From Antedon bifida (lineage: Eukaryota > Echinodermata > Crinoidea > Comatulida > Antedonidae), in NCBI GenBank assembly GCA_963402885.1, contig OY727093.1, positions 14,191,501-14,255,500 on the forward strand: 64,000 bases of DNA, written 5' to 3'. Positions 9,057 to 45,978 of this stretch are shown here, in pieces. The position numbers and the translations under genes were made by a program. Under the pieces are notes generated by a model, which made no database searches, was not told where the DNA came from, and was given only the letters and a program-made list of their open reading frames with translations. The first letter of the stretch is position 1. Each line of letters starts with the position of its first letter.

Positions 9057-12000
9057 CTATTCAGTGTCTTTTATACTGTCATATTTCATTTCTTGTTTGG
9101 ATATGTTTTCTTCGATGGAATGGAACTGCTCCTCTGCTTTTGCAAACAACAAAAATATCGTCAATCCAAACAACTGTATTACCGCAATTATCTTAAACAT
9201 CAAGTACCACTGACCATGTGTGTTCTGAAAATTAATAATTACAATATGGTGATAATAACTAAATGGATAGGAACAGAAGAGGTTCCATTAATGTAAGCAT
9301 ACAGTGATTAATATTAGCAAACTTACTTTTTTCTTTAATAATGCAGCAAATAATTTGTCCCAATAAACCCAGTACTACTTGCTAAACATGACATGATTCC
9401 TACAATCACTGATGAATAATGCTTCGTTATGTCCAATACGTTCGCCGTGAAACAAGTATAACATCCTAGTAACCCGAATGCTAGTATTAGCGTATTCAGG
9501 CATAATATCTTATATCATAAAATCCTATACAAATAAGTAAGAAAGCAGATAACCCCATACCTAAGAAAGAGAAATATTATATTAGTGAATGATTCTCATT
9601 CTTGGTTGTCATTCTAATTCCGAAACACTATTACGATACAATGTCAACATTGTGAAAAAAATACGAACTCAGAGGCAAGAAATTTGGACACTCAAATATA
9701 GGTATCGTTCACTACAACAAGTATTTGTATTCAAGTTGTTATTATCCATGTGTCGTATGTTAAAGTAAACTTTGTTTTCGTCTAAATGCTTGGCAATACT
9801 CAATTATTATAAGGCTTATATTGAATAGAATATAACTTCTTAAAATGAGTGACTTTTTTTCCATAATAAATCTATGAACGTTTACTGAGAATTGTGAACA
9901 GTTTCCTTGCTTGCAAAATAGTCAACTTTTCACAGCGAATAAAGAAGTCAGCACATACACCAGATAGTAGGCAGAATAAGCATTCCACAATGCCTAGAAT
10001 CGACATAAGCCACCCAATCTGTAAAATTTAAGGTATATTATACAATCGAATTTGAACTATACCACGAACTCTCCAGTGGTCTAATGGTTAGGACATCTGC
10101 ATATCAAGCAGGAACGTTCCGAATCTCGGTTGGGACGGCTTTTTCTCACATTCTCACAGATTTTCTCATCTTTATCGTTTTAAATTAATTAATATTCAGT
10201 ATATCCCCGGCCGTCTAGAATTCTTCTATGCCTATGTAAGGTATTACAATAAAGGCCTTTGTCACAACAACCAGATTGTCACCGTCAACTCTTATTTCCA
10301 TTTTGCATCTATTATAGACTTACGGTTTTTAAATTAAACCCTAAGACTTCTGAGATAAAGATTGGTACTTCAGTAATAATTAAAAAAAACCAAACATGCT
10401 GCTAGCGTAAGCAATGACTACCGCCCAAACAGCTGACGACTTCAGTATACTCAACCATGGAACCGATATTTTCTATATGAAAAAAAAATATATAGGCCTA
10501 TATATATAAAATTGTTATTTTTATACATCTAATGTTATGTTTGCTATATATTTATCAGACTCATCACCTTTCATACAACTTCATACAAAATATATAAACC
10601 TTACCTTATTTTTCTCTTAGTGTCAAAACCTTAAGTATACCACCTCGTTTCTCGATATACACGGATCTTTATCAGAAGTTTCGTAAATTAAAACAGCCCA
10701 TAATATTGCAGTAACAACTCCAAAGGCACCTAAATAAAATGAATTGTTTCCAATTTCAGGGGTGAAAACGTAACCTCCTATAGGCAGAGGTAATGTCAAT
10801 AATAGTTTGGTTCACTTTAAACAATAAATAAAAATAAGTAAAATACAAAAATGATATTGTTCAAGTTACTGTATGTATAAAATGACAACGGCCATCCACC
10901 GAGTTTGTAAGCAGAACAAATCCAACCAGACAGTGTGTTACAGATAACCTCATCTAAAGCCACACCTGTATAAAAGCTAACGATCACAAGCAAATAAGTT
11001 TTAATGTCTATTTACCGAAATAGGCAATGGATACAAGTGTACTTCGTTCATGTGGAACAGACCAGCTTGCCAGTATACTGAATGTTGCCGGATTGTGTAA
11101 TCCTTGAAAAACACCATAAATATTATTATTTTCCTTTCTTTTGAGGTCTTATATTGTGTATCTCTATGATTCTTCAGATAATTAAATATTAGTAAATATA
11201 AGCAAAAAAGTTTTTTCTAAAACCAACTATGCATCGTTCAATCTGGAATAAAACTAACCTGTGCCATGCCGTCTAGTACACGTAGAACTATTAGAAGATC
11301 AGTGCTAACTCCAGCTGACCAAGGTATCAGTGCTGTAAGAATACTTGACGAAAGAAGTGAAAATAGATTAACTCGTTTCCCACCTAGTCTGTGCGTCACC
11401 AATCCTCCAAGAAGTGCTGATACGCTATACCCGTAGTAAACAGCACCAAGTATCATTTGACGTGTTTTTTCATCCCAGGCGTACCTTGGTATCTATTGGT
11501 AATAACAAAATTGGTCAAAAAAGGGTCACATCTATGTCATCCTTCTGTGATACGTAGGCCTATACCCATCATGCATGTGGAGATTATTTTACAACAGAAA
11601 ATTCGCTAAATAAATCATTTGTAGACAATCAGTGCAATTATTATTTACAGTTAAACACACAATATAACATAATATTTAGATTATACAAGCATAGCATAGC
11701 CTAGCCACTTTTCCACAAGTTTAGCTTTGCCAGATGTTCAGATTCTAAACGTAGGCTTGTACCCACTTTCCCCACACGTTTAGCATGACGTGCTTAGCTT
11801 TACCTGATGTTTAGATTCTAAACGTATCTTGTACCCACGTTTCAAGTTTAGCTTGATACATGCTAGCTTTGCCAGGTTATTGACGATGGGATTAACATAC
11901 AAAACATTAATTCAAATAAACAAAAGCAATAATAATTTTGTTTTGAAGCTTTAATACAATTTTCGAACTTTTTGGGGAAACATTTCTCGAGGAGAAGTTT

Positions 12001-12349
12001 ACCCCTTTATAAGATTACCTCAAACAAAGGGAATTTCATAGTTTTTGCCTACTCGCAATCTTAAAAACTTGCACTCCAATTTAAGAAAAACATAAAAGAA
12101 ATACATTGTGTAAAATCCTATAGATTTCTTCATTTGATAAATTATAGGCCTACGTTAATTTATTTTTAAGCATACCTCTGTGTTAATGATTTTAGACCGT
12201 GTAGCCTTTTTTGTTAGAGTGACATTTAAAGCGTTATCTCCGGTAGAATTTTGAACCATTTCGATTATGGCAATATTGAGATTCAGTCTCATGCATAGCA
12301 AACACACCTTTACCATGGAACACATTCCAGCTACAAGATAACGCTTCAT
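9057..12349 (-). pseudogene. SLC17-like transporter copy C, pseudogene
   Basis: All nine exon equivalents of the array are present in order, from MKRYLVAGMCSMVKVCLLC (exon 1, 12176-12349) and exon 2 (11261-11493) to the terminal exon (9057-9227), so this was a whole gene. It is now broken. Exon 5 (10610-10734) has lost bases near 10628 and 10635, giving an early stop after VVYL. Exon 6 has a one-base loss in a homopolymer near 10383-10392 that also leads to a stop. Exon 8 has a deletion near 9507-9530 and a single-base loss near 9357. Splice sites are mostly kept, so a transcript may still form. Intron and flank sequence is very close to copies D and E, making this a recent casualty of the youngest expansion. 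The TATA-like element upstream is intact. Confidence 0.88.
10070..10271 (+). repeat. tRNA-derived SINE in intron 6 of copy C
   Basis: A tRNA-like head (A-box-like TGGTCTAATGGTTAGGA, B-box-like GTTCCGAATCTC, and a 5-bp anticodon-like arm around ATATCAA) is followed by an unrelated body ending in aataaaggcctttgtcacaac. The same unit sits at the same intronic place in copies D, E and G, so it was inserted before those duplications. It lacks a foldable acceptor stem and is not a working tRNA. Confidence 0.65.
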
Positions 12350-13440
12350 ATTGGCGATGTTGTATGGTGCCTACAACACTGAATCCACTCCTGCTGCTCG
12401 TTATATAGGCGCTAACTTAGAATTTCCACACTGAAAGAGTGAGCTCAAATTTTACAACAACGTTTTAATTTGTGTTTTCAATACACCTACGCGTCGGTTT
12501 TTAAGCGGTTACAGTATATCGTTTGTATGCATTGATGAATTTAAATAATATATAAAAAGTAGTCCTTCAAGTGGAAAGTAGATACACAAAGCCTATATTG
12601 TACAGTAGCTAATCTGATATATTTAAGAGATGACCAATGATCATTTTCAACAAATAATTAGAATTAGAATAAGATTAATTCAATAAAAAGTTAAATAGCT
12701 CCAAAACCCAGAATTCGAATCCCATTACGTAGTGCTATATCGCGTGCTAGTATCAGGGTCACAAACTTTTTTTTTCTTTTTGGGTGAGTCGACCCGCATT
12801 TATTCTTTCGATTAGTACATTATAGAATATCTATAATTATATATATAAAATGTTCATTAATATGTTTTTATCTATTTATTACAAACATAATTCTAATTTT
12901 CTTATGTGATATTTCCATAACTATGTTTTAGTTTATACACATGATTATAGAATTTTATTTTAACATTTCTTCTTAAAAACAATTATAATCCTCTTATGAT
13001 GTGTTTATACACATTTATTTTTGTATAAATCTATAAAATACAATTATAATTTAATTTGAATGCAATTAGTTCAACTAATAGTTCGTTGTTTCTAATACTT
13101 TATCTTATACTTTGGTTTTGTTCTCTTTTCTGTCTGATACATTATTGTATCTCGTTGTTATTTGCATTATATATGTAATAAATGCTCTAATACAAATTCA
13201 TGAATGTTCTATTCTCTTTTTGCTGATTCTTCATTCACATGATATTCATTTTCTTTTAATGTAGTGATTGATTTCAAAACAAAACAAAGACCAACTATTG
13301 TCGATTTCTTTCCAAGTCTCTCAATAATACGAACTCGAATACGAGAATTCTTTAAATAGATATTAAGACGGCTGCAGCCACCAACAACTACATGCTTAAA
13401 GATATATTTTCGCCCTATGAACACATCTATATCACTTATA
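12350..13440. other. Intergenic spacer between copies C and D, proximal part
   Basis: AT-rich and without a gene. It aligns by eye with the spacer upstream of copy D (18000-18660) and, around 13260-13425, with 20070-20200 (shared text gatttctttccaagtctctc), showing that duplication units included flanking DNA. Confidence 0.6.
12401..12407 (-). promoter_or_regulatory. TATA-like box upstream of copy C
   Basis: TATATAA on the minus strand, about 52 bp upstream of the ATG. The surrounding block (TAGCGCCTATATAACGAG) is kept in copies C, D and E but not recognisable in B or F. Confidence 0.5.
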
Positions 13441-13444
13441 TGCT

Positions 13445-13614
<170 letters not shown>

Positions 13615-13783
13615 CAATGATGTTGCGTAGCACTGTGTAAATTATATATAAATCCCGCCAGAGACATTTTTTCATACAACTAAAAAAAAAAAAAAATACG
13701 GAACTTTCGCCAATGAGCTATGCTCGACGCGATTATGAGATCATGTTCCGAATATGAGCACTGTTTCTATAATTTACAGTATG

Positions 13784-13814
<31 letters not shown>

Positions 13815-13825
13815 CTTATATCCCT

Positions 13826-14320
13826 CACGAAGAAGGAGCCCACGCATGTATTTTAAATTGCAAACAAATTCCAGGCAAAACGCCTACTAAAGCTCATTTA
13901 CGAGAACTGGTCATGTTGATTTTAACCAACCACAAAAATGGTGCCATCTTTTGCAAATTTATTTATGGGACAATTTGAGGCCAATTTTCTGTCCCTCCAA
14001 ACTAATAAACCACTTGTTTGGTTTAGATACATTGACGACATCTTCATGATCTGGACCCATGGTGAAGATAATTTGGAATCTTTTCTTCTCAATATTAATT
14101 CAGCCCACCTAACTATCAAATTTACAGCTAACAAATCCACTAGTAGCGTTGATTTTTTGGACACTATAGTGACCATAGAAAATGGTACACTCAAAACTGA
14201 CCTATTCCGTAAACCCACGGATAAAAATATGTACCTGCTCCCTAGCAGTTGTCATCCCCGACACTGTACTAAAAACATACAGTCAAGCATTACGTATCAG
14301 ACGTATCTGTTCGTCAGATT
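13826..14320 (+). mobile_element. Penelope-like element fragment (reverse transcriptase part)
   Basis: A remnant of a Penelope-like retroelement. The frame from 13938 reads PSFANLFMGQFEANFL, then the reverse transcriptase catalytic block RYIDDIFMIW, and further on SVDFLDTIV, LFRKPTDKNMYL and SCHPRHCTKNI, all typical of this class. Upstream, TPTKAHLRELVMLILTN belongs to the same family. It is a partial copy without the GIY-YIG end. It lies in the spacer between copies C and D, after the TA microsatellite. Confidence 0.82.
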
Positions 14321-14559
14321 TAGATTGACAAAATGGCCTATTAAAAGTCTAATTTTAATAATCTTTATTTTCATGTTTTTGGGGACAATACATCTTTAAA
14401 TACGCTATAGTACTGCTTAAAATCATTTGTAATCTGTGTCTTTAAGCAACGGTTAGACAATCTATTAGGTTTAGGCCATGCATATTTACATTTAACTAGC
14501 ATGTGCTCTTCATTTTCGACACTTTCTTTAGGCCACAAACTTAATAACCTTCTCGACAG

Positions 14560-17500
14560 TCAGTCTTCAGTAGGCCTATCAACAACTTCTGCGGAAGTAT
14601 CGTTTAGAGAATTATAAGATTTCATTTCTTTTTTGGATATGTTTTCTTCTATGGAATGAAACTGCTCCTCTGCTTTTGCAAACAACAAAAATATCGTCAG
14701 TCCAAACAACTGTATTCCCGCAATTATCTTAAACATCAAGTACCACTGATCATGTGTGTTCTGAAAATTAATAATAACAAAATGGTGATAATGAACTAAA
14801 TGGATATGAACAGATTAAAGAGGTTCCATTAATGTAAGCCTACAATACAGTGATTAATATTAGCAAACTATACCTTTTTCTTTAATAATGCAGCAAATAA
14901 TGATGGCCCAATAAATCCAGTACTACTTCCTAAACATGACATGATTCCTATGATCACTGATGAATAATGCTGTGTTATGTCCAATACGTTCGCCGTGAAA
15001 CACGTATTATAACATCCTAGTAACCCGAATACCAGTATTAGCGTAATCAGGCATAATATAGCACTGTCTTGGAAAAATCCTATACAACTAAGTAAGAAAG
15101 CAGATAACCCCATACCTATAGAGAAAGAGAAATACCATATAAATGATTCTCATTTTGGGTTGTCATTCTAATTCTGAAACACTATTATGATATAATGTCA
15201 AAATTGTAAAAAATACGAACCCAGAGGCAAGAAATTTGGACACCCAAAAATAGGTATCGTGTGATACCTAGCCTATATGTGAAAATAAACTTTGTTTTCG
15301 TCTAAATTCTTGACAATACTCAATTATTATAAGGCTTATATTGAATAGAACATAACTTCCTAAAATGAGTGACTTTTTTCCATAATAAATCTATGAATGT
15401 TTACTGAGAATTGTGAACAGTTTCCTTGCTTGCAAAATAGTCAACTTTTCACGGCGAATAAAGAAGTCAGCACATACACCAGATAGTAAGCCAAATAAGC
15501 ATTCCATAATACCTAGAATCGACATAAGCCACCCAATCTGTAAAATGTAATGTATATATAATAATATTATATAATCGAACTATACCACGAACTCTCCAGT
15601 GGTATAATGGTTAGGACATCTGCATATCAAGCAGGAACTTTCCGAATCTCGGTTGGGACGGCTTTTTCTCACATTCTCACAGATTTTCTCATCTTTATCG
15701 TTTTAAATTAATTAATATTCAGTATATCCCCGGCCGTCTAGAATTCTTCTATGTCCATGTAAGGTATTACAATAAAGGCCTTTGTCACAACAACCAGATT
15801 GTCACCGTCAACTCTTATTTTCATTTTGCAAAAATACGTTATCTATTATAGACTTACCGTTTTTAAATTAAATCCTAAGACTTCTGAGATAAAGATTGGT
15901 ACTTCAGTAATAATAAAAAAAAAACCAAACATGCTGCTAGCGTAAGCAATGACTACCGCCCAAACAGCTGACGACTTCAGTATACTCAACCATGGAACCG
16001 ATATTTTCTATATGAAAAATAGACGATATAAAATTGTTATTTTTATACATCTTATTTCATGTTTGCTATATTTATTAATATTAGACTCATCACCTTACAC
16101 ACAACTTCATACAAAATATATAAAACTTACCTTATTTTTATCTTCAGTGTAAAGACCTTTTAAGTATACCACCTCGTTACTCGATATAAACGGATCTTTA
16201 TCAGGAGTTTCGTAAATTAAAACAGCCCATAATATTGCAGTAACAACTCCAAAGGCACCTAAATAAAATTGAATTGTTTCCAATTTCAAGTTGTGAAAAC
16301 GTAACCTCCTATAAGCGGAGGCAATGTCAATAATAGTTTGGTTCACTTTAAACAATAAATAAAAATAGGTAAAATACAAAAATAATATTTTTCAAGTTAC
16401 TGTATATATAAAATGACAACGGCCATCCACCGAGTTTGTAATCAGAACAAATCCAACCGGACAGTGGGTTACAGATAACCTCAGCCAATGCCACACCTGT
16501 ATAAAAGTAACGTTCAACGATTTGGTGTGAAAATATCGGTCACAAAGAAGACCAACTTTAATAACAGTATTTAAGAAAACATTGCATACATTTATTTCTA
16601 AATCAAGAACATAATCGCCATAGTTTGAACATATAATATATTACAATGAAGAAAGCTAACGATCGCAAGCAAATACGTTTTAATATCTATTTACCGAAAT
16701 AGGCGATGGATACAAGTGTACTTCGTTCATGTGGAACAGACCAGCTTGCCAGTATACTCAATGTTGCCGGATTGTGTAATCCCTGAAAAACACCATAAGT
16801 ATCATTATTTTCTTTTCTTTTGTCTTATATTGTGTAACTCCATGATTCTTCAGATAATTAAATATTAGTAAATATAAGTAAAACAGTTTTTCTAAAATCA
16901 ACAAGATATTATGCATTGTTCAATATGGAATAAAACTAACCTGTGCCATGCCGTCTAGTACACGTAGAACTATTAGAAGATCAGTGCTAACTCCAGCTGA
17001 CCAAGGTATCAGTGCTGTAAGAATACTTGACGAAAGAAGTGAAAATAGATTAACTCGTTTTCCACCAAGTCTGTGCGTCACCAATCCTCCAAGAAGTGCT
17101 GATACGCTATACCCATAGTGAACAGCACCAAGTATCATTTGACGTGTTTTTTCATCCCAGGCGTATCTTGGTATCTATTGGTAATAACAAAATTGGTCAA
17201 AAAATGGTCACATCTATGTCATCCTTCTGTGATACGTATACCCATCATGCATGTGGAGATTATTTTACAACAGAAAATTCGCTAAATAAAACGTTTGTAG
17301 ACAATCAGTGCAATTATTATTTACAGTTAAACACACAATATAACATAATATTTAGATTATACAAGCATAGCATAACCTATCCACTTTTTCACAATTGCCA
17401 GATGTTCAGATTCTAAAAGTAGGCTTGTACCCACTTTCCCCACACGTTTAGCATGACGTGCTTAGCTTTACCTGATGTTTAGATTCTAAACGTATCTTGT

Positions 17501-17993
17501 ACCCACGTTGTACTAAAGTTTAGCTTGATACATGCTGGCTTTGCCAGGTTATTAACGATGGGATTAACATACAAAACATTAATTCAAATAAACAAAAGCA
17601 ATAATAATTTTGCTTTGAAGCTTAAATACAATTCTCGAACTTTTTGAGGAAACATTTCTCGAAGAGAAGTTTACCCCTTTATAAGATTACCTCAAACAAA
17701 GGGAATTTCATAGTTTTGGCCTACTCGCAATCTTAAAAACTTGCACTCCAATTTAAGAAAAAATAAAAGAAATACATTGTGTAAAATCCTATAAATTTCT
17801 TCATTTGATAAATTATACGTTATTTTATTTTTAAACTTACCTCTTTGTTAATAATTTTAGACCGTGTAGCCTTTGTTGTCAGAGTGACATTTAAAGCGTT
17901 GTTTCCGGTAGAATTTTGTACCATTTCGATTATGGCAATATTGAGATTTACCTTTACCATGGAACACATTCCAGCTACAAGATAACGCTTCAT
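14560..17993 (-). CDS. SLC17-like anion transporter, copy D (474 aa, short TM1)
   Basis: Nine exons with correct phases and no stop: 17841-17993, 16941-17174, 16695-16782, 16401-16496, 16131-16258, 15858-16007, 15405-15537, 14874-15115 and 14560-14760 (1425 bp). The protein keeps the family landmarks LGGLVTHRLGGKR, VPHERSTL, FFFIITEVPIFISEVLGF and DITQHYSSVIIGIMSCL. Two oddities are visible. Exon 1 has an in-frame 21-bp deletion relative to copies C and E, so TM1 reads MCSMVKVNLNIAIIEMV and loses seven residues, including the arginine usually found before VNL. Exon 9 carries an extra GGCCTA, which adds Arg-Pro to the tail (VVDRPTED against VVDTEE in copy F). Whether the protein still transports is uncertain. 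Confidence 0.82.
14571..14578. repeat. TAGGCCTA octamer inside coding exon 9 of copy D
   Basis: Copies E (TA at 20714-20715) and F (TA at 32945-32946) have agTAtcaacaactt here; copy D has agTAGGCCTAtcaacaactt. The difference is exactly GGCCTA and keeps the frame. Other sites with the same presence/absence pattern: 11555-11562, 12145-12152, 23708-23715 and 45924-45931. Confidence 0.85.
15593..15796 (+). repeat. tRNA-derived SINE in intron 6 of copy D
   Basis: Orthologous to the copy at 10070-10271, with the same A- and B-box-like blocks and the same tail. Same position between exons 6 and 7. Confidence 0.65.
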
Positions 17994-18047
17994 ATTGACG
18001 ATGTTGTATGGTCGTGCCTACAACACTGGATCCACTCCTGCTGCTCG

Positions 18048-18054
18048 TTATATA
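18048..18054 (-). promoter_or_regulatory. TATA-like box upstream of copy D
   Basis: TATATAA on the minus strand, about 55 bp upstream of the ATG, in a block conserved with copies C and E. Confidence 0.5.
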
Positions 18055-20702: not shown

Positions 20703-23700
20703 TCACTCTTTAGTATCAACAACTTCTACAGGAGTATCGTTTATAGAATTATAAGATTTCATTTCTTGTTTGGATATGTTTTCTTCGATGGAATGGAACT
20801 GCTCCTCTGCTTTTGCAAACAACAAAAAAATCGTCAGTCCAAACAACTGTGTTCCCGCAACTATCTTAAACATCAAGTACCACTGATCATGTGTGTTCTG
20901 AAAATTAATAATAACAATATGGTGATATGGAACTAAATGGATATGAACAGATTAAAGAGGTTCCATTAATGTAAGCTTACAATACAGTGATTAATATTAG
21001 CAAACTATACCTTTTTCTTTAATAATGCAGCAAATAATGTTGGCCCAATAAATCCAGTACAATTTGCTAAACATGTCATGATTCCTACAATCACTGATGA
21101 ATAATGCTTCGTTATGTCCAATACGTTCGCCGTGAAACACGTATAACATCCTAGTAACCCGAATGCTAGTATTAGCGTAATCAGGCATAATATAGCACTG
21201 TCTTGGAAAAATCCTATACAAATAAGTAAGAAAGCAGATAATCCCATACCTAAGAAAGAGAAATATTATATTAGTGAATGATTCTCATTCTTGGTTGTCA
21301 TTCTAATTCCGAAACACTATTATGATACAATGTCAAAATTGTGAAAAAAATACTAACTCAGAGGCAAGAAATTTGGACACCCAAATATAGGTATCGTTCA
21401 CTACAACAAGTATTTGTACTCAAGTTGTTATTATCCATGTGTCGTATGTGAAAGTAAACTTTGTTTTCGTCTAAATGCTTGACAATACTCAATTATTATA
21501 AGGCGTATATTGAATAGAATATAAATTCCTAAAATGAGTGACTTTTTTTCCATAATAAATCTATGAACGTTTACTGAGATTTGTGAACAGTTTCCTTGCT
21601 TGCAAAATAGTTAACTTTTCACGGCGAATAAAGAAGTCAGCACATACACCAGATAGTAGGCAGAATAAGCATTCCACAATGCCTAGAATCGACATAAGCC
21701 ACCCAATCTGTAAAATTTAAGGTATATTATATAATCGAATTTGAACTATACCTCGAACTCTCCAGAGGTCTAATGGTTAGGACATCTGCATATCAAGCAG
21801 GAACGTTTCGAATCTCGGTTGGGACGGCTTTTTCTCACATTCTCACAGATTTTCTCATCTTTATCGTTTTAAATTAATTAATATTCAGTATATCCCCGGC
21901 CGTCAATAAAGGCCTTTGTCACAACAACCAGATTGTCACCATCAACTCTTATTTTCATTTTGCAAAAATACGTTATCTATTATAGACTTACCGTTTTTAA
22001 ATTAAACCCTAAGACTTCTGAGATAAAGATTGGTACTTCAGTTATAATAAAAAAGAAACCAAAAACGTTGCTAGCGTAAGCAATGACTACCGCCCAAACA
22101 GCTGGCGACTTCAGTATACTCAACCATGGAACCGATCTTTTCTATATGAAAAAAAATATTTATATATAATTGTTATTTTTATACATCTAATGTTATGTTT
22201 GCTATATTTATCAGACTCATCACCTTTCATACAACTTCATACAAAATATATAAACCTTACCTTATTTTTCTCTTCAGTGTCAAAACCTTTTAAGTATACC
22301 ACCTCGTTTCTCGATATACACGGATCTTTATCAGGAGTTTCGTAAATTAAAACAGCCCATAATATTGCAGTAACAACTCCAAAGGCACCTAAATAAAATG
22401 AATTGTTGCCAGTTTCAAGGGTGAAACGTAACCTCCTATAAGCGGAGGTAATGTCAATAATAGTTTGGTTCACTTTAAACAATAAATAAAAATAAGTAAA
22501 TACAAAAATAATATTGTTCAAGTTACTGTATGTATAAAATGACAACGGCCATCCACCGAGTTTGTAAGCAGAACAAATCCAACCGGACAGTGGGTTACAG
22601 ATAACCTCCGCAAAAGACACACCTGTATAAAGTAACATTCAACGATTTGGTGTGAACACCATATCGAATGAAGAAAAATATATCGGTCACAAAGAAGGCC
22701 AACTTTAATAATAAAAAACATCGCATAAATTGATTTCTAAATTAAGAACATAATCGCCATAGTTGGAACGTATAATATATTACGTTGATAAAAGCTAACG
22801 ATCGCAAGCAAATAAGTTTTAATGTCTATTTACCGAAATAGGCAATGGATACAAGTGTACTTCGTTCATGTGGAACAGACCAGTTTGCCAGTATACTGAA
22901 TGTTGCCGGATTGTGTAATCCCTGAAAAACACCATAAATATTATTATTTTCCTTTCTTTTGTCTTATATTGTGTAACTCCATGATTCTTCAGATAATTAA
23001 ATATTAGTAAATATAAGTAGAACAGTTTTTTCTAAAACCAACTATGCATCGTTCAATATGGAATAAAACTAACCTGTGCCATGCCGTCTAGTACACGTAG
23101 AACTATTAGAAGATCAGTGCTAACTCCAGCTGACCAAGGTATCAGTGCTGTAAGAATACTTGACGAAAGAATTGAAAATAGATTAACTCGTTTTCCACCA
23201 AGTCTGTGCGTCACCAATCCTCCAAGAAGTGCTGATACGCTATACCCATAGTAAACAGCACCAAGTATCATTTGACGTGTTTCTTCATCCCAGGCGTACC
23301 TTGGTATCTATTGGTAATAACAAAATTGGTCAAAAAAGGGTCACGTCTGTCATCCTTCTGTGATACGTATACCCATCATTCATGTGGAGATTATTTTACA
23401 ACAGAAAATTCGCTAAATAAAACGTTTGTAGACTAATCAGTGCAATTACACTATTTTCAGTTAAACATACAATATAATATAATATTTAGATTATACAAGC
23501 ATAGCTTGTAGCCTACCCACTTTTCCACAAGTCCAGCTTAATATATTCTTAGCTTTGCCAGATGTTTAGATTCTAAACGTATCTTGCACCCATTTGGGTG
23601 CAACATACAAAACATTAATTCAAATAAACAAAAGGAATACTAATTTTGCTTTGAAGCTTTAATACAATTCTCACACTTTTTGGGGAAATATTTCTCGAAG

Positions 23701-24054
23701 AGAAGTGTAGGCCTACCCCTTTATAAGATTACCTCAAACAAAATTTTATAGTTTTGGCCTACACGTAATCTTAAAAACTTACACTCCAATTTAAAAAAAA
23801 ATAAAGGAAATACATTGTGTAAAATCCTATAAATGTCTTCATTTAATAAATGTTATACGTAATTTTATTTTTAAGCTTACCTCTTTGTTAATAATTTTAG
23901 ACCGTGTAGCCTTTGTTGTCAGAGTGACATTTAAAGCGTTGTTTTCGGTAGAATTTTGAACCATTTCGATTATGGCAATATTGAGATTCATTCTCATGCA
24001 ATACAAACACACCTTTACCATGGAACACATTCCAGCTACAAGATAACGCTTCAT
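20703..24054 (-). CDS. SLC17-like anion transporter, copy E (complete, 478 aa)
   Basis: Nine exons with matching phases and no stop: 23881-24054, 23074-23307, 22834-22921, 22527-22622, 22261-22388, 21992-22141, 21575-21707, 21011-21249 and 20703-20897 (1437 bp). It opens MKRYLVAGMCSMVKVCLYC with a full TM1 (RMNLNIAIIEMV) and two N-glycosylation sequons (NST, NVT) in the first loop. It has the family loop LGGLVTHRLGGKR, VPHERSTL, SNVFGFFFIITEVPIF and LDITKHYSSVIVGIMTCL, and ends DTPVEVVDTKE. It is the best intact representative of the C/D/E subgroup. It is inferred to be an organic-anion or anion/proton symporter; substrate unknown. A TATA-like box lies 55 bp upstream. Confidence 0.9.
21759..21922 (+). 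repeat. tRNA-derived SINE in intron 6 of copy E (internally deleted)
   Basis: Same insertion as in copies C and D, but lacking about 30 bp between ccggccgtc and aataaaggcc. Confidence 0.6.
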
Positions 24055-24108
24055 ATTGGCGATGTTGTATGGCCGTGCCTACAACACTGGATCCACTCCT
24101 GCTGCTCG

Positions 24109-24115: not shown

Positions 24116-24295
24116 GGCGCTAACTTAGAATTGCCACACTGGAAGAGTAGATGTCAAATTTTACAACAACGTTTTAATTTGTGTTTTCAATACACCTACG
24201 CGTCGGTTTTTAAGCGGTTACAGTATATCGTTTGCATGCATTGATGAATTTGAATAATATATAAAAAGTCTTTCAATGGAAACAAATTCTATTGC

Positions 24296-28133: not shown

Positions 28134-28139
28134 AGAAAA

Positions 28140-30087: not shown

Positions 30088-30148
30088 TAGGTTGTAAAAA
30101 TCGAAAGCTTTTTCTTTAAATCTTAATATCTTAATCTCATGTTTAATG

Positions 30149-30267
30149 CTCTGTCTACACTATCAAACTAATTTGATGTGCCCAAATATGGTAGTGATAT
30201 GACATCATCCATATTATATGGGCACATCACATTTTTGCTACATAAAGTTTGATAGTGTAGACAGAGC
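30149..30267. mobile_element. MITE, same family, copy 2 (best preserved)
   Basis: Perfect terminal inverted repeats GCTCTGTCTACACTATCAAA / TTTGATAGTGTAGACAGAGC, 119 bp overall. TTAA occurs on both sides (gtTTAAt|gctct and agagc|TTAA), which would fit a TTAA target, but other copies do not confirm it. Confidence 0.75.
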
Positions 30268-35900: not shown

Positions 35901-38900
35901 ATTTGACATGTTTTTTCATCCCAGGCGTAACTGGGTATCTATTGAACAAAATATTATTATAAGCATTATATGCAATGTAATTCTTTATTAATACATCAGA
36001 ACAAATTTGATAAAATTAACATCAAGAAGGTAAGCAACAAAACAAACAAATAAACAAACAACATCGGAACTTTCAAAAACAATTAATTATGTCTCATAAA
36101 AAGGCGGAGTTAACATAATTGATAACCGGTAAAATAATATCAAAATCATGCGCGCCCATAAGAAATCAAAATAAATTGCTCCCTGTCTAACATTGATATA
36201 CAAATCATAACGTAAATCTGAATAAAATGAGCATTTGATGATGAAATTCATATTCAATTTCGTTCCTGTTGCAGGTACATAGTCTATCAGAGGGCAAAGT
36301 GCACAGGCCCGTAGCCAGGGGGGGGGGGGTTTGGTTCGGGCGAACCCCCCTTTACAGCGAACCACCCCCCTCCCCCACCCCAACCCTTAACCGACTGCGA
36401 ACCCCCATCCCCGACATCCCCAATACCTCACCACCCTCATCTCTGAAAATCCTCCAAATACGTGCCCCACAATACAAAAGGTTATTTGTAAATTTAAAAA
36501 TTCGTAAACTCGTTCGTGAATAACTCATACCTTAATGTTAAACAAATGAATTGGTTGCCGATTTTCACCTGAAAAATAATACGAATTTTTGGTCCCATGA
36601 TGTAACATGATATTGACGCGAGCTTGGGCACGAACGAATCGTACAAAGGACACCGCTAGACAACCGCGTACCTATTGTTTCGATCACTGGCAGTCAGCAT
36701 GCATAAAGTATATAGCCTTCCGACGTACATCAAAAAATGGAACGCTGCGGTTACCTACAATATTTATGTGTGGCTATGAAGTATAGTGTATCATCATCAT
36801 AGAGGATTATAGTGAATTTAATATATTACACTATAATATATATGGTATCATGTTCTGTAGTTTACATTAGGCCTATAGCATTCGATTTTTTTTTTCTAGA
36901 CCACCAGCCGATACGTAGACCTACTCAACTGTATTAATACCACCTATTTACATTGATATATTTAGTTTCCTCAACAAATTGCTGTAAATAAATATAGATA
37001 GAGCTATCAGGGGCGGTCGCAGGACTATTTTAAGAGGGTTGCCCAAAGACTCCAGGGCTGTAGACACTGAGTATTTGAGCAAGAAAATTGTTAAATGACA
37101 CCCCTAGATGGCCGCAAATGGTACTCTCGCGCGTAAAATTCATGATAATTTTTTTTTCGTTCAATGCGAACGTCACGGGGAAGTCCCCGATGAAGGTACT
37201 TTTGGTACGGTAATACATTCTAATAACTGTACTCAATTAATGTAAATTAATTATCAATTAATAATTTTAAAAAGTTATACAAAAAATATGAAGCTGTTGC
37301 TATAAATATATTGAGCGAAAGGTGTATAATTTGGAATTTTAATTCATTTAAAAATGCTAAATAAAGTCAGATGTTAAAACCACAATTTCCAAAAAATCAT
37401 TTTTATTTATCCACTATAAACTTTACAAACGTGTTGTTTTAAACCACACTCCAAATAAAACAAAGAAAATAATGATAGGACATTTGCAGAAAGAAGCAAA
37501 CTTTGCTCTGCTACCGGTATAACACGGTTCAAATTTCGGAACGTCTATAAATTACTACGGAAATTCGGCCTAATATTTACGAACGTACGGAAATGAAGAT
37601 AAATAGGGTACTACACGCATCGGAAATACAAAACTATACGCACAATTATGATTTGGCCTAAAAATTGGCCTTAGATTATGGAAAACCCCCGGCAAAACGC
37701 AATAATTATGGACAAATCGATTATTATTAGCCTTGGCAATATGCCTAATATTTAAAAGGAATGAATATAGGCTATATTTCGTTTGTCGATGAATTTTTGA
37801 ATTCATGTGTGAATGATTGATCCATTAGAGGTTATCTGTGATGGCGCTGGCTCTAGTAACACTGCTATGCGTGGATAATTTGTGAATAACGTAGTATGCT
37901 ACATACACGAGCCTAGATAGGGAAGATCTGTACTGTCGTTCATTGCGAGAGGAGGGGGAAGTCCGGTAATGTGTCATGAAAAATGTAACAAGCCAGAGAT
38001 GAAATAAAATCACTAACATTTAGCTGATTGTCGTTGTTTTAGTCGTCGTCAGAAGTTTATCGACCGACATCTATTTCTCATGTGTAGTAGAGCGTTTCTT
38101 TGATTGAATAATGTTGTTTGTATTATAACACAAGTTCATTTTGGATTTTCAGTAAATTACCAATGGTTTATTCAAAGTCAAACTGTAACTAATCCCTCAC
38201 TATTCAATCAAAATGTTATTATTATACTACTATATTGTTGAAAAATGGATTGCGTGATATGAAAATGGATTGATAGTAAAACGTAATAAAGATACGTTCT
38301 TGTCTGGTTATTAGGTATTCATGCTCTGATTTTTGTAGCGTTCCATTTAAAATAAATTACAAAGAAATATTTTAGTTGTGAAGGTCGTTTTAACAATTAG
38401 GCTAATCAAAACATTCAACAATGATAAAATGCCCTGCAACTCTGTAACTACTTTATGACTAAGCCTATCAAGTTCCGGGTCCGGATGGATATTGTATACG
38501 ATGAAATGGAACTCAATTTTAATTTAGTGGCAGAAACAACATTTAGTATGGCGCGGGGCAGTGACCCAAATACTTAGTGTCCGAACCCCCCTTGACAGAT
38601 CCTGGCTACGGCCCTGGTGCACTTGTTCTCAGTTAAGCAACTTTTAACGATAGTGGTAAGGCTAAGTTTTAGCATTTCATTACGAATTCCGTCATACGCA
38701 GCAGCAGACTACCGTTCTTAAGGTTTCGTACAGCCTTATCCAATGAATAAATACGACTGTCTAGTATAGGCATATTGCTAAATTGTTGAAATCATCATAA
38801 TTGTTAATGTCAGAATCTGAATGAGGGGTGCATCTATTTAATAAGTTAGAAAAGCCATTCTTTTGGCAAATACTATGCTCAGTTCTTTCCAATGTATTCA

Positions 38901-40551
38901 ATTCCAGAAAGCTATTTGACAATTACAAAATGTTTGAGTCTGGTTGTCATAATATTATGTTTCTGATTTCCTGTGGTTAGATAAAGGATTAGCCAATCAT
39001 AATGGTGTAATTGTGGTGGGAAATTAACCCACCACTAACCCTAACCCTAGCCTAGGGTCTATTTAATAACTAAATTAAATAAGCCTATCTGGGCCTAGGC
39101 CTAGCTAGCCTAGTAAGTAGGTCTAGAGTCTAGGCCCTGGAGGGAACATTTTATCCTCCTCTGAAGCCCCTAATTTGCATGTCCAGTATAAGTAGAAAAA
39201 TGTAATAGATATTAAGGGTAGAGAAAATAATATGATAGTAGAAAGACGTATAGAGTATAGAGAAGAAAGGTCTAGACTGGTAGAAAGTTGTATTGTATTA
39301 ATACTGAGTTACAAGAAATAAAAGTTATAGTTGAATATACTTTTTGTATGTGGAATCATTTGGCAGTCAGTGTACGTCGCGTGGATTAAATACGCCAGAG
39401 AACATATTACGCTCGGAACCTACAATATAAATCCACTACACTGTTCTATACCGTTCATAATTCTAATACCACTATTTCTGCATATAGTTTAACATTTAAT
39501 TATAGTTCGACATGTCGTCAGACGGTTTATTAGTTATTATCATGGTTTAATGGGGGTATCAACACCGTATTTAAAATTGTAAATAATTATCACTATCATT
39601 ATTCATTTAAAAAAATGTCATTGCATGTACGAGCGTTCAGATCACCAGAAACAGTACAATGCCCTACTTTGGAGAATTTAGTTAGTGTACGTAGGCCCTA
39701 TTATTATTAAATCAAATATATTTTCTCTTCGAGCTGTATAGGATGATTTTTTAGGCTAATATAATATGTAAAGCATAAATAAATAAGAATTGTCATCTGT
39801 ATTTAATCAAAATGATTTCAGTAGATTTACATTTCATTTCCAAAATACCCTTTAAGATATCAAATTTTATACCAATCAAATAAACCACCAAATGGATGCT
39901 GGGCTCTTGGGTCTAAGTTTATTAATAAAAGAAAAGGCAGGCATATTGAATCTGGAAGTGTCACTAATATTGCAATGTGTCTCTATTAACAAAAAATATA
40001 AGTTATTTAAAACGGTTATAATATTAAAATCAAGTTTAATTTACGGGTTCCACCAATTCTACAATGAAGCCCATCAATGTTCCCAAAATTATTTATAGTA
40101 TACATAAACATAATCAAAAACTGAAAATAATGCAAGTTATTATCGTAAATAGCCTATATAACGTTTAAAATTGAAAGTGTAAAATGTCCAACTTTAAATA
40201 CAGTAGTAGTTATCGTCTTACCACGCGAGCGTGGGTTTAAGAGATAGAAAGGGAAAACTCAATATTAAAACTACAGACTTTTAGAAAGTATTTAAGTTAA
40301 GAACATAGGATAAGATTGTTTTTTCACATTTTGTCTTGTTTGTATTTTGATGTGAACAAACGTGAAGTGATTACCTCGGTATATTTGTTTGTATAACTTG
40401 CAGCTAATGTCACAGTTCCATTAAAGCCGTCCCTCTCTGTTGAATTATGAGTTTCCACCATTTCGATTATGGCAATATTAATATTCACTCTCGTAGAAAA
40501 CAAACAAAACTTTAGTATGGTACACATTCCAGCTACTAAATAACGCTTCAT
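32934..40551 (-). CDS. SLC17-like anion transporter, copy F (complete, 482 aa)
   Basis: Nine exons with good phases and no stop: 40375-40551, 35705-35938, 35421-35508, 35142-35237, 34861-34994, 34549-34698, 34147-34279, 33373-33614 and 32934-33128 (1449 bp). It has MKRYLVAGMCTILKFCLF, the TM1 signature RVNINIAIIEMV, sequon NST, LGGLVTYRLGGKR, VPHERSTL, FASNVFGFFFILTEAPTF and LDITKHYSSVIVGIMTCL, with the tail ENISKQEMKSYNSINDTSAE. Exon 8 ends one base differently from its sisters, but the donor GTAAGT still joins in frame (KAK instead of KKK). Intron 1 is 4.4 kb because it houses a 2.3 kb hAT-like element and other repeats; intron 7 has a 40-bp tandem repeat. It groups with copy B by exon 1 and exon 6 sequence. 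Substrate unknown. Confidence 0.9.
33720..33918. repeat. 40-bp tandem repeat, five copies
   Basis: Units containing AGCCTAGATTAGAAACAGTT begin at 33721, 33761, 33801, 33841 and 33880. Differences are single bases in a T run. It lies in intron 7 of copy F. The repeats are contiguous, without spacers. Confidence 0.95.
36304..38616. mobile_element. hAT-like TIR element (2.3 kb, non-autonomous) in intron 1 of copy F
   Basis: Terminal inverted repeats CAGGCCCGTAGCCAGG (left) and CCTGGCTACGGCCCTG (right) differ at one position. GTGCA flanks both ends (36299-36303 and 38617-38621) as a 5-bp direct repeat. CAGGG-type ends are typical of hAT elements, though 8-bp duplications are more usual there. 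A long G run follows the left end. No transposase frame was found. Confidence 0.75.
38741..39672. repeat. Dispersed repeat, also present at 48.1-48.7 kb
   Basis: The text from aatgaataaatacgactgtc to about 38855, and again 39610-39672 (gtcattgcatgtacgagcgt...), matches one contiguous block at 48130-48655, so about 0.75 kb here is either inserted or was lost there. The intervening part includes a TAGGCC-rich patch (39050-39130) and nothing coding. Confidence 0.6.
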
Positions 40552-41687
40552 ATTTACGATATCGTTTACGATTCACTCCTTCCCCTTTTTAATTTAGCAC
40601 TACGTGAAAGAGTTGCTTCTAACATTTAACGATTCCAATGTCAGCAACACTGCTTTGACTATGCAGAATTATAAAGTTGTGTCATTCAATCCTCATGATT
40701 TTGTGTATAAAGGAAAACTAACCATTCATTGGTTTCATTGTTATGCATATTTTTAGTTATCCGCTTGGTATACCAAGCGGATAACTCCTTGTTATTGTAT
40801 GAGATATTTCTCCATGATGAGATCAACAGTTTTTTGGTTATCCGCAACTTAGTTGCGGATAACCCTTGTTATTGTCACGTTTCTTTTTCTTCATCTTTAT
40901 TCTTCTTTCTTTCCCGGATTTTTGTTGCAGCTATATCTCAAATTTTTGTAGACATAACTTTGTATAACTTTCTCATAAGATTGACCTGTAGCTGTAGATG
41001 TGCAGGAAACTTTGTTATATGACGTTAGAGTCGCGTAGCGTAAGTTACGCGCGATTTTATGAATTTCAATGATTGATCATAGATTATAAACCAAAAGTCA
41101 TTTTATATTGACACTTGGTGAAAATTTAAGTCATATCAAGGGCAAACTTTCTATGGATTAAAAATGGCATGTTTCACAAGAAGTTACGCGCGCACGCGCA
41201 TTTAAAATTTCAAAATGCGCAAAATTAATTTCTAATCAACTTTTTATGCGTTTCTTGTCATTTTGAGCATGTCATAAATTCCCACGGGCGCGCAATTTTT
41301 TACGCACGCCGTGCGCACGTAGCGTTAAAAACATATTTTTTTCTCTTGAATTATATTTTTCAAGCCTTTTCTAGTAATTTTGAAAACAATTTAGACCTTT
41401 TCCAATTTAAATAACGCCATACGAACACGTTGAATTAAACATTTCATGCGCGTTTTTTATGAAAAAGCTTAAAAAATCGTCAAAATTTTGTCTTTTTTTA
41501 AACAGTCTTAGTTTCTAAAGTAAACCGTGAACCGTTTATTTTTATTACAAAATCTAGAAGTTGATGAGTTGTAGATATCGGATCATGCATCGATAAGGCT
41601 AAAAAAAAAATTGTGACGTCATCGTATGGCCACACGAATGTAAAATATAGGATTTTTGTCTCTTTCGTTATTGCTCATCACATTCAA

Positions 41688-43968
41688 CACACTTAAAACT
41701 AAAGGTGCAATAAAGGGTGCAAACCTATAAAAGGGTGCTAATTTGCGCCTTTTTCTCATAAAATGGTGCAGAGTTCATAAAAGGTTTATTTTTGCACCTT
41801 TTATATCGAAAAATGCAGAAAAATATAAAAAGGTGCAGAACTGCACCACAAAGGCCCAAGTAGGCCGACGCCATGGTGACTGTGTGACAAAATAAGACCT
41901 ATTAGTGTTAGATTAATGAACGCTTCTTGATATATTTAACTTAGGGCTTCTAAAAACTTAAAAGGTAATGATTATGACAATTTTTTTAGAATGACATTAT
42001 TGTGGTAAGTTAAAACAAAAATAAGAAAGATTCATAATAATATCGGAATTCGAAAAAATCTGTTTCTTACGGAACATTAGAAAGTCGCTGGCTTGTAACT
42101 GAAAATTAAAGTTTTATACCTTTAACATGATAAATTCAAAGGTTCAACTGGGCACCCTATAAGGTTTAACATCAGTTAAAAGGTGCATAATAGCACCTTT
42201 TTGTACAATTTTCGTGCCGTATGCGCACGCAAGATGTCTTTAAACAATTTTTAAAATATTGAATTTCAGAGGTTATTTACTCTGGTTTGCTTAAGTCTAG
42301 AATAAGTAAACTTTTCTTTCATATTTAACAATATTATTAGAATATTTAATATCATAATGTAGGCATCTGTTGTAAATTTATTTGAAACAGGAATTGAACA
42401 ATAATTTTAAGCGCGTCCCGTGTGCGGTTGTTAAACATCCATCCATGCAGTTTAAATATTGTGAGCAGAGTTTGCGCCCAAAAAATCAGGCCTATAAAAC
42501 TAGGCCTAGCTCCCGGATCCCACACCTCTCCCGTGTAGGATAGCTGTTGAAAGTAAGTAACGAAGCTTTATAGGCATGTAATTTGGTGGTTTTTATTAGA
42601 TTAATTATTATATAGGCCTATAAGCCTAGGCTAAATAAATAAGGCTAGCTAGGCCTACCTAGAGGGTAGCCTAGGCCAGGCGGCTAGGCGCGGCCTAGGT
42701 TAGGCCTAAAGTAGGCAGTCTAGAGGCCTACAGTAGCCTCTCGGGGGGGGGGGGGGGGGGCTAGTCCTAGACCAGGCCTAGCCTACTTACCTGGGCCTAG
42801 GCCCTAGTTAGTGGGTTAGGCATAGGCTAGGTAGACCTTAAACTTAATTAAAAGCAGACCTAGACTAGGCTAGTCTAGGCCTAGCCGGCTAGCTAGGCCT
42901 ATAATTAATAATAGGCCTAGCCTAGTTATTAATATTAATAGTTACAGTAGTTGGGTATTATTATGCCTAGTAGGCCTACCTAGGCTATATTAATTCTTAT
43001 ACACATTATTTTTAATTATAAATAGTTACAGCCTACATGATGTCATGGAGGGATAAAATAAGTTTAAACATGAAAGAGCACCTCTGCTCTGATCAGCAGC
43101 AATGAAGATGTCCAGAAAAGGAGAAAGAAATGTGACCACATGTACCGTAATACTCTAGCTAGTATATATAGGGCCTACTATACTACGAGCTGAGGAAAGG
43201 GAGAGGAACATACTTTAAAGTATGTGAAGCATGTGGACTAGGTAATTTGACTTTAAAAATCAGAACAATGTCAATAATGTATTGTATGATGTTGTCATAT
43301 TAATGATAATATTAATATAATAGTTTCCCTTCCTATTTCATGCTTTTTAGGAAAGTACATAATCAGGTGAAAATGTTCGGAAAAGGTGAACCAGACATCA
43401 AGAACACTGTTTCAGATATATGGGGATACTGAAGAGAATACTGTCAAAGATGTCATCATTAGATACTTTTAACAATAGGCCTATTGTTGGTTTAAGAGAT
43501 GGCCACACTCTATTTAAGGTGCAAAGACTGGTAATTGCCATCCAATAATTCAGCAGTTGAATTGAATAATGTAATGTTTTAAAGTTGAATAAAATTATAC
43601 CACGCTTAATCAATATTTTTTGTATTTTAGTGATTTTTATTTGTGCACCTTTTTAACAGAAATTTGAACCTTAGAAGAGCATTATTGAACCTTTTATTAG
43701 GGTGTAAAGTTGCACCTTTATTTAGAGGTTGAATTTTGCTCCTTTGGGGAGCTGCTATTGTTGCATTTCATTTGCACCTTTTAGGGTAGAAAATTACACC
43801 TTATATGGTGCAAATGTGAACTCCAAAGGAGCATTATAGCACCCTTTATCAGGGTTCAAAATTGCACCTTCCGTCAAAGGTGCAGTTGTGCACCTTAAAG
43901 GGAGCTGCTATTGTTGCATCGGTTTGCACCTTTTTAGGTAGAGATTTGCACCTTTTTTTTTTAGTGTG
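41688..43968. mobile_element. TIR element with subterminal GGTGCA arrays, nested in H1
   Basis: Left end CACACTTAAAACTAAAGGTG and right end reading inward CACACTAAAAAAAAAAGGTG form inverted termini about 2.3 kb apart. GGTGC(A) motifs are repeated many times inside each end: left at 41703-42190, and mostly as TGCACC at right 43640-43950. CACT(A) termini with dense subterminal repeats recall EnSpm/CACTA elements; target duplication could not be settled. No transposase frame seen. Confidence 0.55.
42480..43010. repeat. TAGGCCTA/CTAGGCCTAG-dense patch with G18 run
   Basis: The stretch is built largely from overlapping aggcctag, gcctaggc and taggcctа-like words plus a run of about 18 G at 42743-42760. 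Similar patches occur at 39050-39130, 53450-53510, 56990-57130 and 61318-61558. Confidence 0.7.
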
Positions 43969-44709
43969 AATGGAGCGCATCACGCTTATCTGTATTCCTT
44001 TTTCTCCTACATTTAAATATTGTGTAGGTCAATCAACTTTCTTTAGCATGAGATAAAAATATTTTAATTTTTATGACGTCATCATGCCTAAAAATTTTAA
44101 TTACGTGGGTCATTAATTTCATCTTTACAGTAAATTTTATTCTGTAATAGCTCGTAAGAATAAAATGTGATAATCACGATTAAAACGTTTTCTGGAAGCT
44201 ATTGGATTGTAGATACGAATTCATGTAAACATTTTGCCAATCGGATGTTGTGACGTCATCATATGGCCAGTTGAATAAAAAAAGTTGTATTTTCATATTT
44301 TGCGTAATAGTTCATCACATTTAAAAGGGTGCGCATCTATATTTTACGTATTCAAATTTCTTCTACACGTTAATATGTTGTTCCTAAGATAATTTCCTTC
44401 TGAAATTGCTATCTAAGTGTTTCATTTTGATACCGTCGCCATGTTAAAAATTGGAATAAATGGCGGGTCCCGTAATTTCACCTATTCTACACTGTATGTA
44501 ATATGTATACAGATTATACTGTTTGCATGTATATACTATATGACACAAAATTGACAGAATTCAGCACTAACAGCATATCATATTCTTCAGTTCTTGTCAT
44601 AATGCCATAATCTTTATCTCTGTGTGCAATATTCCAACGTATGACGTGCACGTGGCGTTTGTCGTGGTGCGGATAACTAACTCGTCAAAGTGACGAGTTT
44701 CATGTCTAG

Positions 44710-45756
44710 TGTTTTATTTGTATTTTAAACTAATTTTTCTTTTGAATGTTGTAACATTTTGCTCTTTATTTTATTTACTTGATGTGTAGATGTGTTGTGC
44801 TTAGTTTATACATTTAGAGCTACCCTCCATGTGTTATAGTCTGTAGTATACAAGAACCAATAAGGAAAAGTGAAATTACACTTACACTTTCACTCTTCCC
44901 TAGGCATATTTACATTGTACAGTATATCATTTTGCAAGTGTAAAGCCGTGTGTAAAGAAGAGCGGGTCTTTTGTTCGTTGTCTTTCAGGCTTTCGCTATG
45001 TTCTTATTTCGCATTTGCAGTTGTTACCTTTATGTAAGTTATCGTATTATATACTGTATTTAGCAATTGGATGACATGCAAGTTTACTTGGTTATTATAA
45101 TCTTATAGTTCTTGCTCATATCGTAGGCCTATGTACTATAAGCAATTGTTACCAAATAACCATGCTGTGCTTAGCAATTAATGACACTTTATATATACAT
45201 TTACTATATTTATCTTAGTTTTGATACATTTTGAATGATTGTCAGCATTTTGCTCGAACGGAAGATGATGCGTCTACACGTTTAGGGCGACTTGTTGCCG
45301 TGTTATGGTGTTGTATAAATATGACTTGAGGTAATATTTATTATAATTAATTGTTCGTTGTTGAATTGTTGTGAATTACTATATTATTGACTATATAGGC
45401 TACAGTGATGTTTCTTATTCGTTTATTAATATTTTGCAGGGCTTGAATTCTCATGTACTTAAATGATATGTAATTGAAGTAATGTTTTGTTCCTATAGTA
45501 CAATAACGATCACTAATAAATCGGAAGGATAGAATCCAAGTGTTTATATTCTCCTTTTTTGTGTGGAACCACGACATAAATTCACTGATTTTCAACTTAT
45601 GCCTACAATCCTATAACGGCCATAATATTATTTATTTAAAAAAAAATATTTTCTTTCGATTTATGTACATTTTCCATAGGAAAAATGCATCAATTTTACA
45701 TAAATGATATACCAATTTTGATGAAGTAACCTATAATTAATATAAATTAAAAAAAG
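44710..45756. other. Gene-free stretch between H1 and the duplicated sphingomyelinase tail
   Basis: AT-rich. No coding region, hairpin or repeat boundary stood out. One TAGGCCTA lies near 45125. Confidence 0.5.
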
Positions 45757-45978
45757 TTCACTCTTTGAAAATCTATTTTCAAGTCTTTCATATAGTTCCA
45801 ATAACTTGGTCAGCTGGGTTATTGAATGTAACGTTTTCCATCCAAGAAATTGGTATGTGACAAACAAATAGAAAACTCACTTTTTACACAAAACTTACAT
45901 CATCAGCGGACTATTTATAGCTGTAGGCCTACGTCATTGTATTTTTTCACTCATCATAAAAAATATATAAAGAGTAAA

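What the first reader, a model, noticed from the sequence alone, without database searches (positions are those of the whole stretch)
11555..45931. Recurrent 6-bp GGCCTA insertions at TA, creating TAGGCCTA palindromes
I count well over 25 exact TAGGCCTA octamers, where base composition (about one third GC) would predict fewer than one. In duplicated segments the octamer appears as a clean indel: copy C 11555-11562 against TA in D (17237-17238) and E (23368-23369); C 12145-12152 against D 17816-17817; D 14571-14578 against E and F; E 23708-23715 against C and D; 45924-45931 against 49024-49025. Each time TA becomes TA-GGCC-TA. This is what a transposon with a TA target and GG...CC termini would leave on excision, or it may be an unknown templated micro-insertion. 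I do not know of a description of this pattern.
Basis: partly seen in the sequence, partly recalled or inferred. Interest (0 to 1): 0.87.

Follow-up and report, generated by a model that had tools for sequence, protein, structure and literature searches.

The report
TAGGCCTA scars inserted at TA sites
This animal genome carries an eight-letter palindrome, TAGGCCTA, far more often than chance allows, apparently because something repeatedly inserts six letters at TA, most likely jumping DNA that leaves a scar when it departs, though the jumping element itself was not found.

Summary
The window has 42 TAGGCCTA (0.67 expected); the 315.6-Mb genome has 109,821 against 1,444 for the reversed word. 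All five quoted indels are exact TA/TAGGCCTA differences, 5 of 19 six-bp indels. At four sites the octamer is in one of three aligned paralogues, which favours gain. In a high-copy MITE, inserts at one TA include CAG 10, CTG 9 and GGCC 3 of 100 listed. TACWGTA, the known Tc1/Sleeping Beauty scar (recalled), is also in excess (276,231 v 112,495). So TAGGCCTA most likely is a second class of TA-transposon excision footprint. The carrier was not found. A tempting candidate in the window (54392-57663, termini TAGGCC...GGCCTA) has 3-bp target duplications in 10 of 10 copies scored; it is Academ-like, and its excision should leave a 3-bp repeat that the scars lack. An element-free micro-insertion stays open. 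The genome is probably an echinoderm's (inferred from the mitochondrial code). Octamer searches of the paper library showed no description in the listings I saw.

The parts
11555..11562 (.). TAGGCCTA in one of three aligned paralogous segments (TA at 17237 and 23368)
12145..12152 (.). TAGGCCTA in one of three aligned paralogues
14571..14578 (.). TAGGCCTA in one of three aligned paralogues
23708..23715 (.). TAGGCCTA in one of three aligned paralogues
45924..45931 (.). TAGGCCTA against TA at 49024-49025 (two copies only)
46208..46220 (.). TACTGTAGGCCTA: 11 bp absent from the paralogue, readable as a Tc1-type scar (TACTGTA) and the octamer at one TA
57120..57127 (.). TAGGCCTA inside the Academ-like element; exactly 6 bp absent from copy L017, present in L016
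12510..12516 (.). TACAGTA, a 5-bp difference from TA in the same duplicated segments (also at 24219); direction not tested
42451..43090 (.). CTAG-rich cluster with octamers and shorter TA-X-TA words
61171..61710 (.). second CTAG-rich octamer cluster
54392..57663 (.). Academ-like DNA transposon copy with TIR TAGGCCATAAGCAGTA and 3-bp duplication CAG; examined as source of the octamers and rejected

Best explanation
TAGGCCTA is the excision footprint of a TA-targeting cut-and-paste transposon (Tc1/mariner-like behaviour) whose termini read GG(CC)...(GG)CC. Insertion duplicates TA; excision leaves terminal bases of each end; joining gives TA-GGCC-TA, a net gain of 6 bp. I think the uniform GGCC is best explained if the cut leaves a self-complementary 4-nt overhang, GGCC, that anneals and is ligated cleanly, just as CAG overhangs anneal with an A.A mismatch and give TACAGTA or TACTGTA (recalled model). 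A 2-nt overhang (GG) filled in is the alternative. Shown: excess, exact 6-bp difference at TA, polarity by parsimony, a second TA-footprint class at the same MITE sites. Inferred: that a transposase does it, the overhang model, and that the responsible family is scarce, diverged or extinct.
For: Exact TA/TAGGCCTA indels and gain polarity at 4 of 4 three-copy sites. At a TA in a MITE TIR (20,717 exact copies) 192 places carry 1-12 nt inserted (reversed control 5); of the 100 listed, CAG 10, CTG 9, GGCC 3, AGCC 2 (one substitution from GGCC); GGCC is the commonest of ten 4-mers. At a second MITE TA, all 92 listed (control 0): CAG 5, CTG 4, GGCC 1 of six 4-mers. CAG and CTG near 1:1 fits repair of a mismatched CAG overhang (recalled). 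TACWGTA 276,231 v 112,495 for the reversed word. Next to the octamer T is scarce (0.17 v 0.32 around all TAs, p 1.2e-4) and A/G common. Isolated octamers sit in unrelated flanks and have an excess of one-substitution neighbours (84 v 39.5 expected; 50 intact v 1.49), as neutral scars of mixed age would.
Against: No resident TA|GG...CC|TA family: the GG pairs in the TIR scan of about 187 kb were five, one the Academ-like element, three between CTAG-rich clusters, one inside a large inverted repeat in L006. 15 DDE_3 matches genome-wide (lower bound) are few for about 100,000 scars, though copies can hop many times; PF01359 and PF03184 were not searched. GGCC is rarer than CWG at both MITE sites, and 76 of 100 and 82 of 92 inserts are neither class (slippage, pieces of the MITE). 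Flank likeness to TACWGTA is partial: octamers have more G at -1 (0.29 v 0.20), and their -2 T (0.39 v 0.36 background) and -3 A (0.38 v 0.32) are weak and untested. Known footprints are more variable (recalled; ZB leaves 0-3 bp, PMC7913693 passage); outside clusters the shorter GCC spacer is only 1.8-fold in excess. No filled-site/footprint pair was seen.
Confidence: 0.55

Rival explanations
1. A non-transposon micro-insertion: a staggered break at TA is filled in (giving TA...TA) and GG is added to each 3' end, untemplated or from a fixed template, before joining, giving TAGGCCTA.
For: Explains the uniform GGCC, the TA duplication and the absence of a resident family in the scanned sample. 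CTAG-rich clusters with GGCC, GCC, GC, CC and C spacers look like repeated events at new TAs.
Against: Does not explain why a Tc1-type scar occurs at the same MITE TAs. I know of no enzyme that adds exactly GG (recall, not searched).
Confidence: 0.26
2. Excision footprint of the Academ-like family that ends TAGGCC...GGCCTA, present in the window at 54392-57663.
For: Terminal TAGGCC and GGCCTA would collapse to TAGGCCTA; 26 and 24 of the 40 scored hits per end are 97% or more identical, so copies are young.
Against: Its target duplication is 3 bp in 10 of 10 scored copies (CAG at the window copy), so a scar should read NNN-TAGGCCTA-NNN; the indels show no such repeat and start from a TA.
Confidence: 0.04
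3. A maintained motif (binding or methylation site) that spreads by substitution, like HIP1 in cyanobacteria (recalled).
For: Great excess, palindrome.
Against: Clean 6-bp indels, not substitutions; many one-substitution neighbours.
Confidence: 0.06
4. Replication slippage or tandem expansion of TAGGCC.
For: Tandem TAGGCCTAGGCCTA and CTAG-rich clusters.
Against: The isolated insertions are not copies of neighbouring sequence; 50 of 77 octamers lie outside clusters.
Confidence: 0.08

Closest known systems
Tc1/mariner excision footprints (Sleeping Beauty TACWGTA; Tc1/Tc3 TACATGTA, both recalled)
   Same: TA duplicated, short palindromic or near-palindromic remainder
   Different: remainder is GGCC (4 bp), no resident element with matching ends found, very high density; TACATGTA itself is not in excess here (12 against 15.8 expected, both strands counted)
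Academ/AcademX transposons
   Same: the window holds a family with TAGGCC...GGCCTA termini and 3-bp duplications; AcademX duplications are 3 or 4 bp (PMC10045372, passage)
   Different: should not produce TA to TAGGCCTA; it shares only terminal letters with the octamer
HIP1 highly iterated palindrome of cyanobacteria (recalled)
   Same: a very abundant 8-bp palindrome
   Different: TAGGCCTA arises by 6-bp insertion at TA

Membership tests
Tc1/mariner excision footprint | TA target site duplicated around the remainder | tested here: met
   exact TA/TAGGCCTA indels
Tc1/mariner excision footprint | remainder of 2-4 bp (PMC7913693, passage) | tested here: met
   GGCC, 4 bp
Tc1/mariner excision footprint | gain relative to the empty site | tested here: met
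   present in one of three aligned paralogues at 4 of 4 sites; parsimony only
Tc1/mariner excision footprint | palindromic AT-rich target preference (ZB: PMC7913693, passage) | tested here: inconclusive
   63 isolated octamers, 13 of them from L015, a stretch fetched because octamers were listed there: only the -1 shift is clear
Tc1/mariner excision footprint | resident element with TA duplication and GG...CC termini | tested here: inconclusive
   none in about 187 kb scanned; the rest of the genome was not scanned for termini
Tc1/mariner excision footprint | transposase linked to such termini | tested here: inconclusive
   15 DDE_3 matches; one fetched, no TA-bounded TIR pair seen; PF01359 and PF03184 not searched
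Academ transposon (window 54392-57663) | TIRs with 3-4 bp target duplication | tested here: met
   3 bp identical in 10 of 10 scored copies, 4 bp in 0 of 10
Academ transposon (window 54392-57663) | Academ transposase with nuclease part | tested here: inconclusive
   the 8.4-kb copy has a 1,148-aa open frame; DUF6589, CXC and flap-endonuclease matches are all below their cut-offs; I had no Academ model to compare
Octamer as Academ footprint | 3-bp duplication flanking TAGGCCTA | tested here: not met
   the indels lack it
HIP1-like iterated palindrome | spread by substitution | tested here: not met
   6-bp indels

The most novel reading that the evidence does not exclude
A previously undescribed process inserts the palindrome GGCC with a duplicated TA into this lineage's genome, without any mobile element ever occupying the site, about 100,000 surviving times; or, nearly as novel, a TA transposon whose palindromic GGCC ends give self-cohesive 4-nt overhangs and so heal to one near-invariant scar.
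Probability: 0.3. Interest if true: 0.85.

Novelty: new variant of a known kind. Interest (0 to 1): 0.64.

Why it matters
If these are excision scars, the genome keeps a dense record of transposon departures (word excess over the reversed control about 108,000 for TAGGCCTA and 164,000 for TACWGTA), from which excision rate, target choice and end-joining outcome could be measured without a resident element. If no element lies behind them, it is an unknown insertion mutation acting at TA on a genome-wide scale.

Tried and rejected
Academ-like element as source: at first I read its ends as TA|GGCC with a TA duplication; comparing three bases outside showed a 3-bp duplication in 10 of 10 scored copies, so I dropped it. 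Copies L016, L017 and L040 have damaged right ends and were not scored; L038 shows TTT on both sides. A second family nested in copy L017 seemed to begin TA|GGCC; reading 20 left ends showed the conserved part starts further out (RTGTAGGCC), so it is not a GG family. A Harbinger-type transposase (DDE_Tnp_4) in copy L039 lies in an insertion relative to the window element, read as nested. ISL2EU (AT duplications) and PIF/Harbinger (TWA) do not fit a TA duplication (PMC4482050, passages). The comparison of octamer flanks with Academ ends (p 0.014) is void, since those bases are its target duplication. Structure prediction of the 1,148-aa frame was useless (mean pLDDT 34) and no fold search was run. 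Attempts to name the organism through papers failed. In one search the printed site totals per dinucleotide cover only the last locus and are not used.
Full report
Observation. TAGGCCTA occurs 42 times in the 64-kb window against 0.67 expected, and 109,821 times in the 315.6-Mb genome against 1,444 for the reversed word. The window is denser than the genome; twelve 10-kb samples of contig C1 hold 35 in 120 kb. Among TA-N4-TA words outside CTAG-rich clusters it is by far the most enriched, 50 occurrences against about 1.5 under a second-order model. The spacing matters: TAGG and CCTA meet 77 times at spacing 0, 1-11 times at spacings 1-29.

Indels. Self-alignment of the window plus seven samples (134 kb) gave 703 unique insertion sites, 19 of them 6 bp; 5 of the 19 are TAGGCC (rotation), the next class has 2. 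At 11555, 12145, 14571 and 23708 the octamer is in one of three aligned paralogues and the other two have TA, which favours gain; gene conversion was not excluded. 45924 is a two-copy comparison. At 46213 the paralogue lacks 11 bp, readable as a Tc1-type scar and the octamer together. 10493 lies in a TA run and is uninformative. At 57120, inside a transposon, two nearly identical copies have the octamer, a third lacks exactly 6 bp, and a fourth (L040) is too rearranged there to score.

A genome-wide experiment on one TA. A MITE family with TIR AAGCTCTGTCTACACTATC is abundant; CTGTCTACACTATC occurs 20,717 times. With 1-12 nt between that TA and a repeated TA it occurs 192 times, against 5 for the reversed pattern. 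Only 100 of the 192 are listed. Of these 23 are 10-mers, mostly pieces of the MITE itself; 37 are 3-mers, of which CAG 10, CTG 9 and CAC 7 (CAC fits local duplication); ten are 4-mers: GGCC 3, AGCC 2, CACA 2, CCTG 2, CGTC 1. At a second MITE TA, whose empty count was not taken, all 92 matches are listed: T 21 (slippage or a sublineage), CAG 5, CTG 4, GGCC 1 of six 4-mers. So two recurrent inserts that do not look local exist: C(A/T)G, the known Sleeping Beauty/Tc1-type footprint (recalled), and GGCC. TACWGTA is 276,231 against 112,495 for its reversed word.

Flanks. For 63 isolated octamers (13 from L015, a stretch fetched because octamers were listed there) the base next to TA is A 0.40, G 0.29, C 0.14, T 0.17, against 0.34, 0.18, 0.15, 0.32 around all TAs (p 1.2e-4 for T). 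At -2 T is 0.39 (background 0.36) and at -3 A is 0.38 (0.32), weak and untested. For 128 TACWGTA, many of them chance words, the same positions are A 0.41, T 0.45, A 0.45. The likeness is partial: both disfavour T at -1, but only octamers clearly favour G. Tc1/mariner elements such as ZB prefer a palindromic AT repeat (PMC7913693, passage).

The false lead. The window element 54392-57663 has termini TAGGCC...GGCCTA. Each end gave 40 scored hits, 26 and 24 of them at 97% identity or more, and its first 12 letters occur 136 times. Ten copies read at both ends have different flanks, and the three bases outside TAGGCC and GGCCTA are identical in 10 of 10, four bases in 0 of 10. The duplication is thus 3 bp, and TA belongs to the TIR. 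An 8.4-kb stretch on C7 bounded by these TIRs encodes a 1,148-aa frame; that it is one element is inferred, as its interior does not match the window copy. The frame has sub-threshold matches to DUF6589 (E 9.3e-5) and a CXC domain (E 0.0027) and to flap endonuclease (E 0.027). AcademX elements make 3 or 4 bp duplications, linked by that author to an encoded nuclease (PMC10045372, passage), so I call it Academ-like. Excision should leave a 3-bp repeat around the octamer, which the indels lack; I do not take it as the source.

Clusters. Nine CTAG-rich stretches in 184 kb (3,980 bases), picked by density of CTAG, TAGG, CCTA, GCTA and TAGC, hold 27 of 77 octamers. With L014 added (chosen because octamers were dense there) the words between neighbouring TAs are C 61, A 58, none 41, GGCC 41, GCC 37, GC 16, CC 13 and others (512 in all). 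GCC, GGCC and GC are 14- to 29-fold over the outside, A is not; part of this follows from how the clusters were picked. They look like repeated events, then decay or slippage; this is inference.

Mechanism. Shown: 6-bp difference at TA, gain by parsimony, recurrence, co-occurrence with the Tc1-type scar. Inferred: transposase, overhang, scarce or lost carrier. A 4-nt self-complementary GGCC overhang would explain uniform healing. Against: no carrier family in the scanned sample, only 15 DDE_3 matches (lower bound), the one fetched without a TA-bounded TIR pair. An element-free micro-insertion remains the main rival (0.26).

Organism. Contig C27 (15,844 bases) carries COX1, whose ATA and AAA codons sit where I expect Ile and Asn (conserved sites recalled), fitting code 9, echinoderm or flatworm. 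I favour an echinoderm from recalled COX1 likeness; no database match was made.

Literature. Octamer searches of the held library: 182 papers hold the string, 40 listed; with 'palindrom' 9, all listed; the tandem form 0; TAGGCC with transposon and footprint 27, 15 listed. None of the listed titles and abstract beginnings describes this pattern; I opened none of them. PMC7913693, PMC10045372 and PMC4482050 were seen as passages.

Noticed in passing
window 54392-57663; L061: Young Academ-like transposon family (TIR TAGGCCATAAGCAGTA, 3-bp duplication); an 8.4-kb stretch on C7 bounded by its TIRs has an open 1,148-aa frame.
   Followed up: partly
window about 94-35950: Up to six tandem diverged copies of a roughly 5-6 kb segment (families D1-D8).
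   Followed up: no
window 30143-30267 and elsewhere: Very abundant MITE with TIR AAGCTCTGTCTACACTATC, 20,717 exact TIR cores in the genome; it allows genome-wide tests of insertions at a fixed site.
   Followed up: yes
window 50648-52729: Long open frame with reverse transcriptase domain RVT_1, E 5.2e-24; no octamer inside.
   Followed up: partly
L039:256-1365 (minus strand): 370-aa Harbinger-type transposase frame (DDE_Tnp_4, E 1e-33), read as nested in an Academ-like copy.
   Followed up: partly
L017 interior; 20 left ends L041-L060: Another young family, terminus RTGTAGGCCACTATGTAATTTCG, 40 scored hits at 98-100% of 277 candidates; a TA duplication is likely but only left ends were read.
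   Followed up: partly
L011: A 10-kb sample that looks like tandem satellite nearly throughout, without any octamer.
   Followed up: no
window 42743-42760: Run of 18 G in a CTAG-rich cluster.
   Followed up: no
window 47952-48607: Tandem 327-bp duplication, 99% identical, both copies with the octamer; a third homologue has TAGGCATA.
   Followed up: no
L062: 356-aa Tc1-like transposase frame without a TA-bounded TIR pair in my scan.
   Followed up: partly
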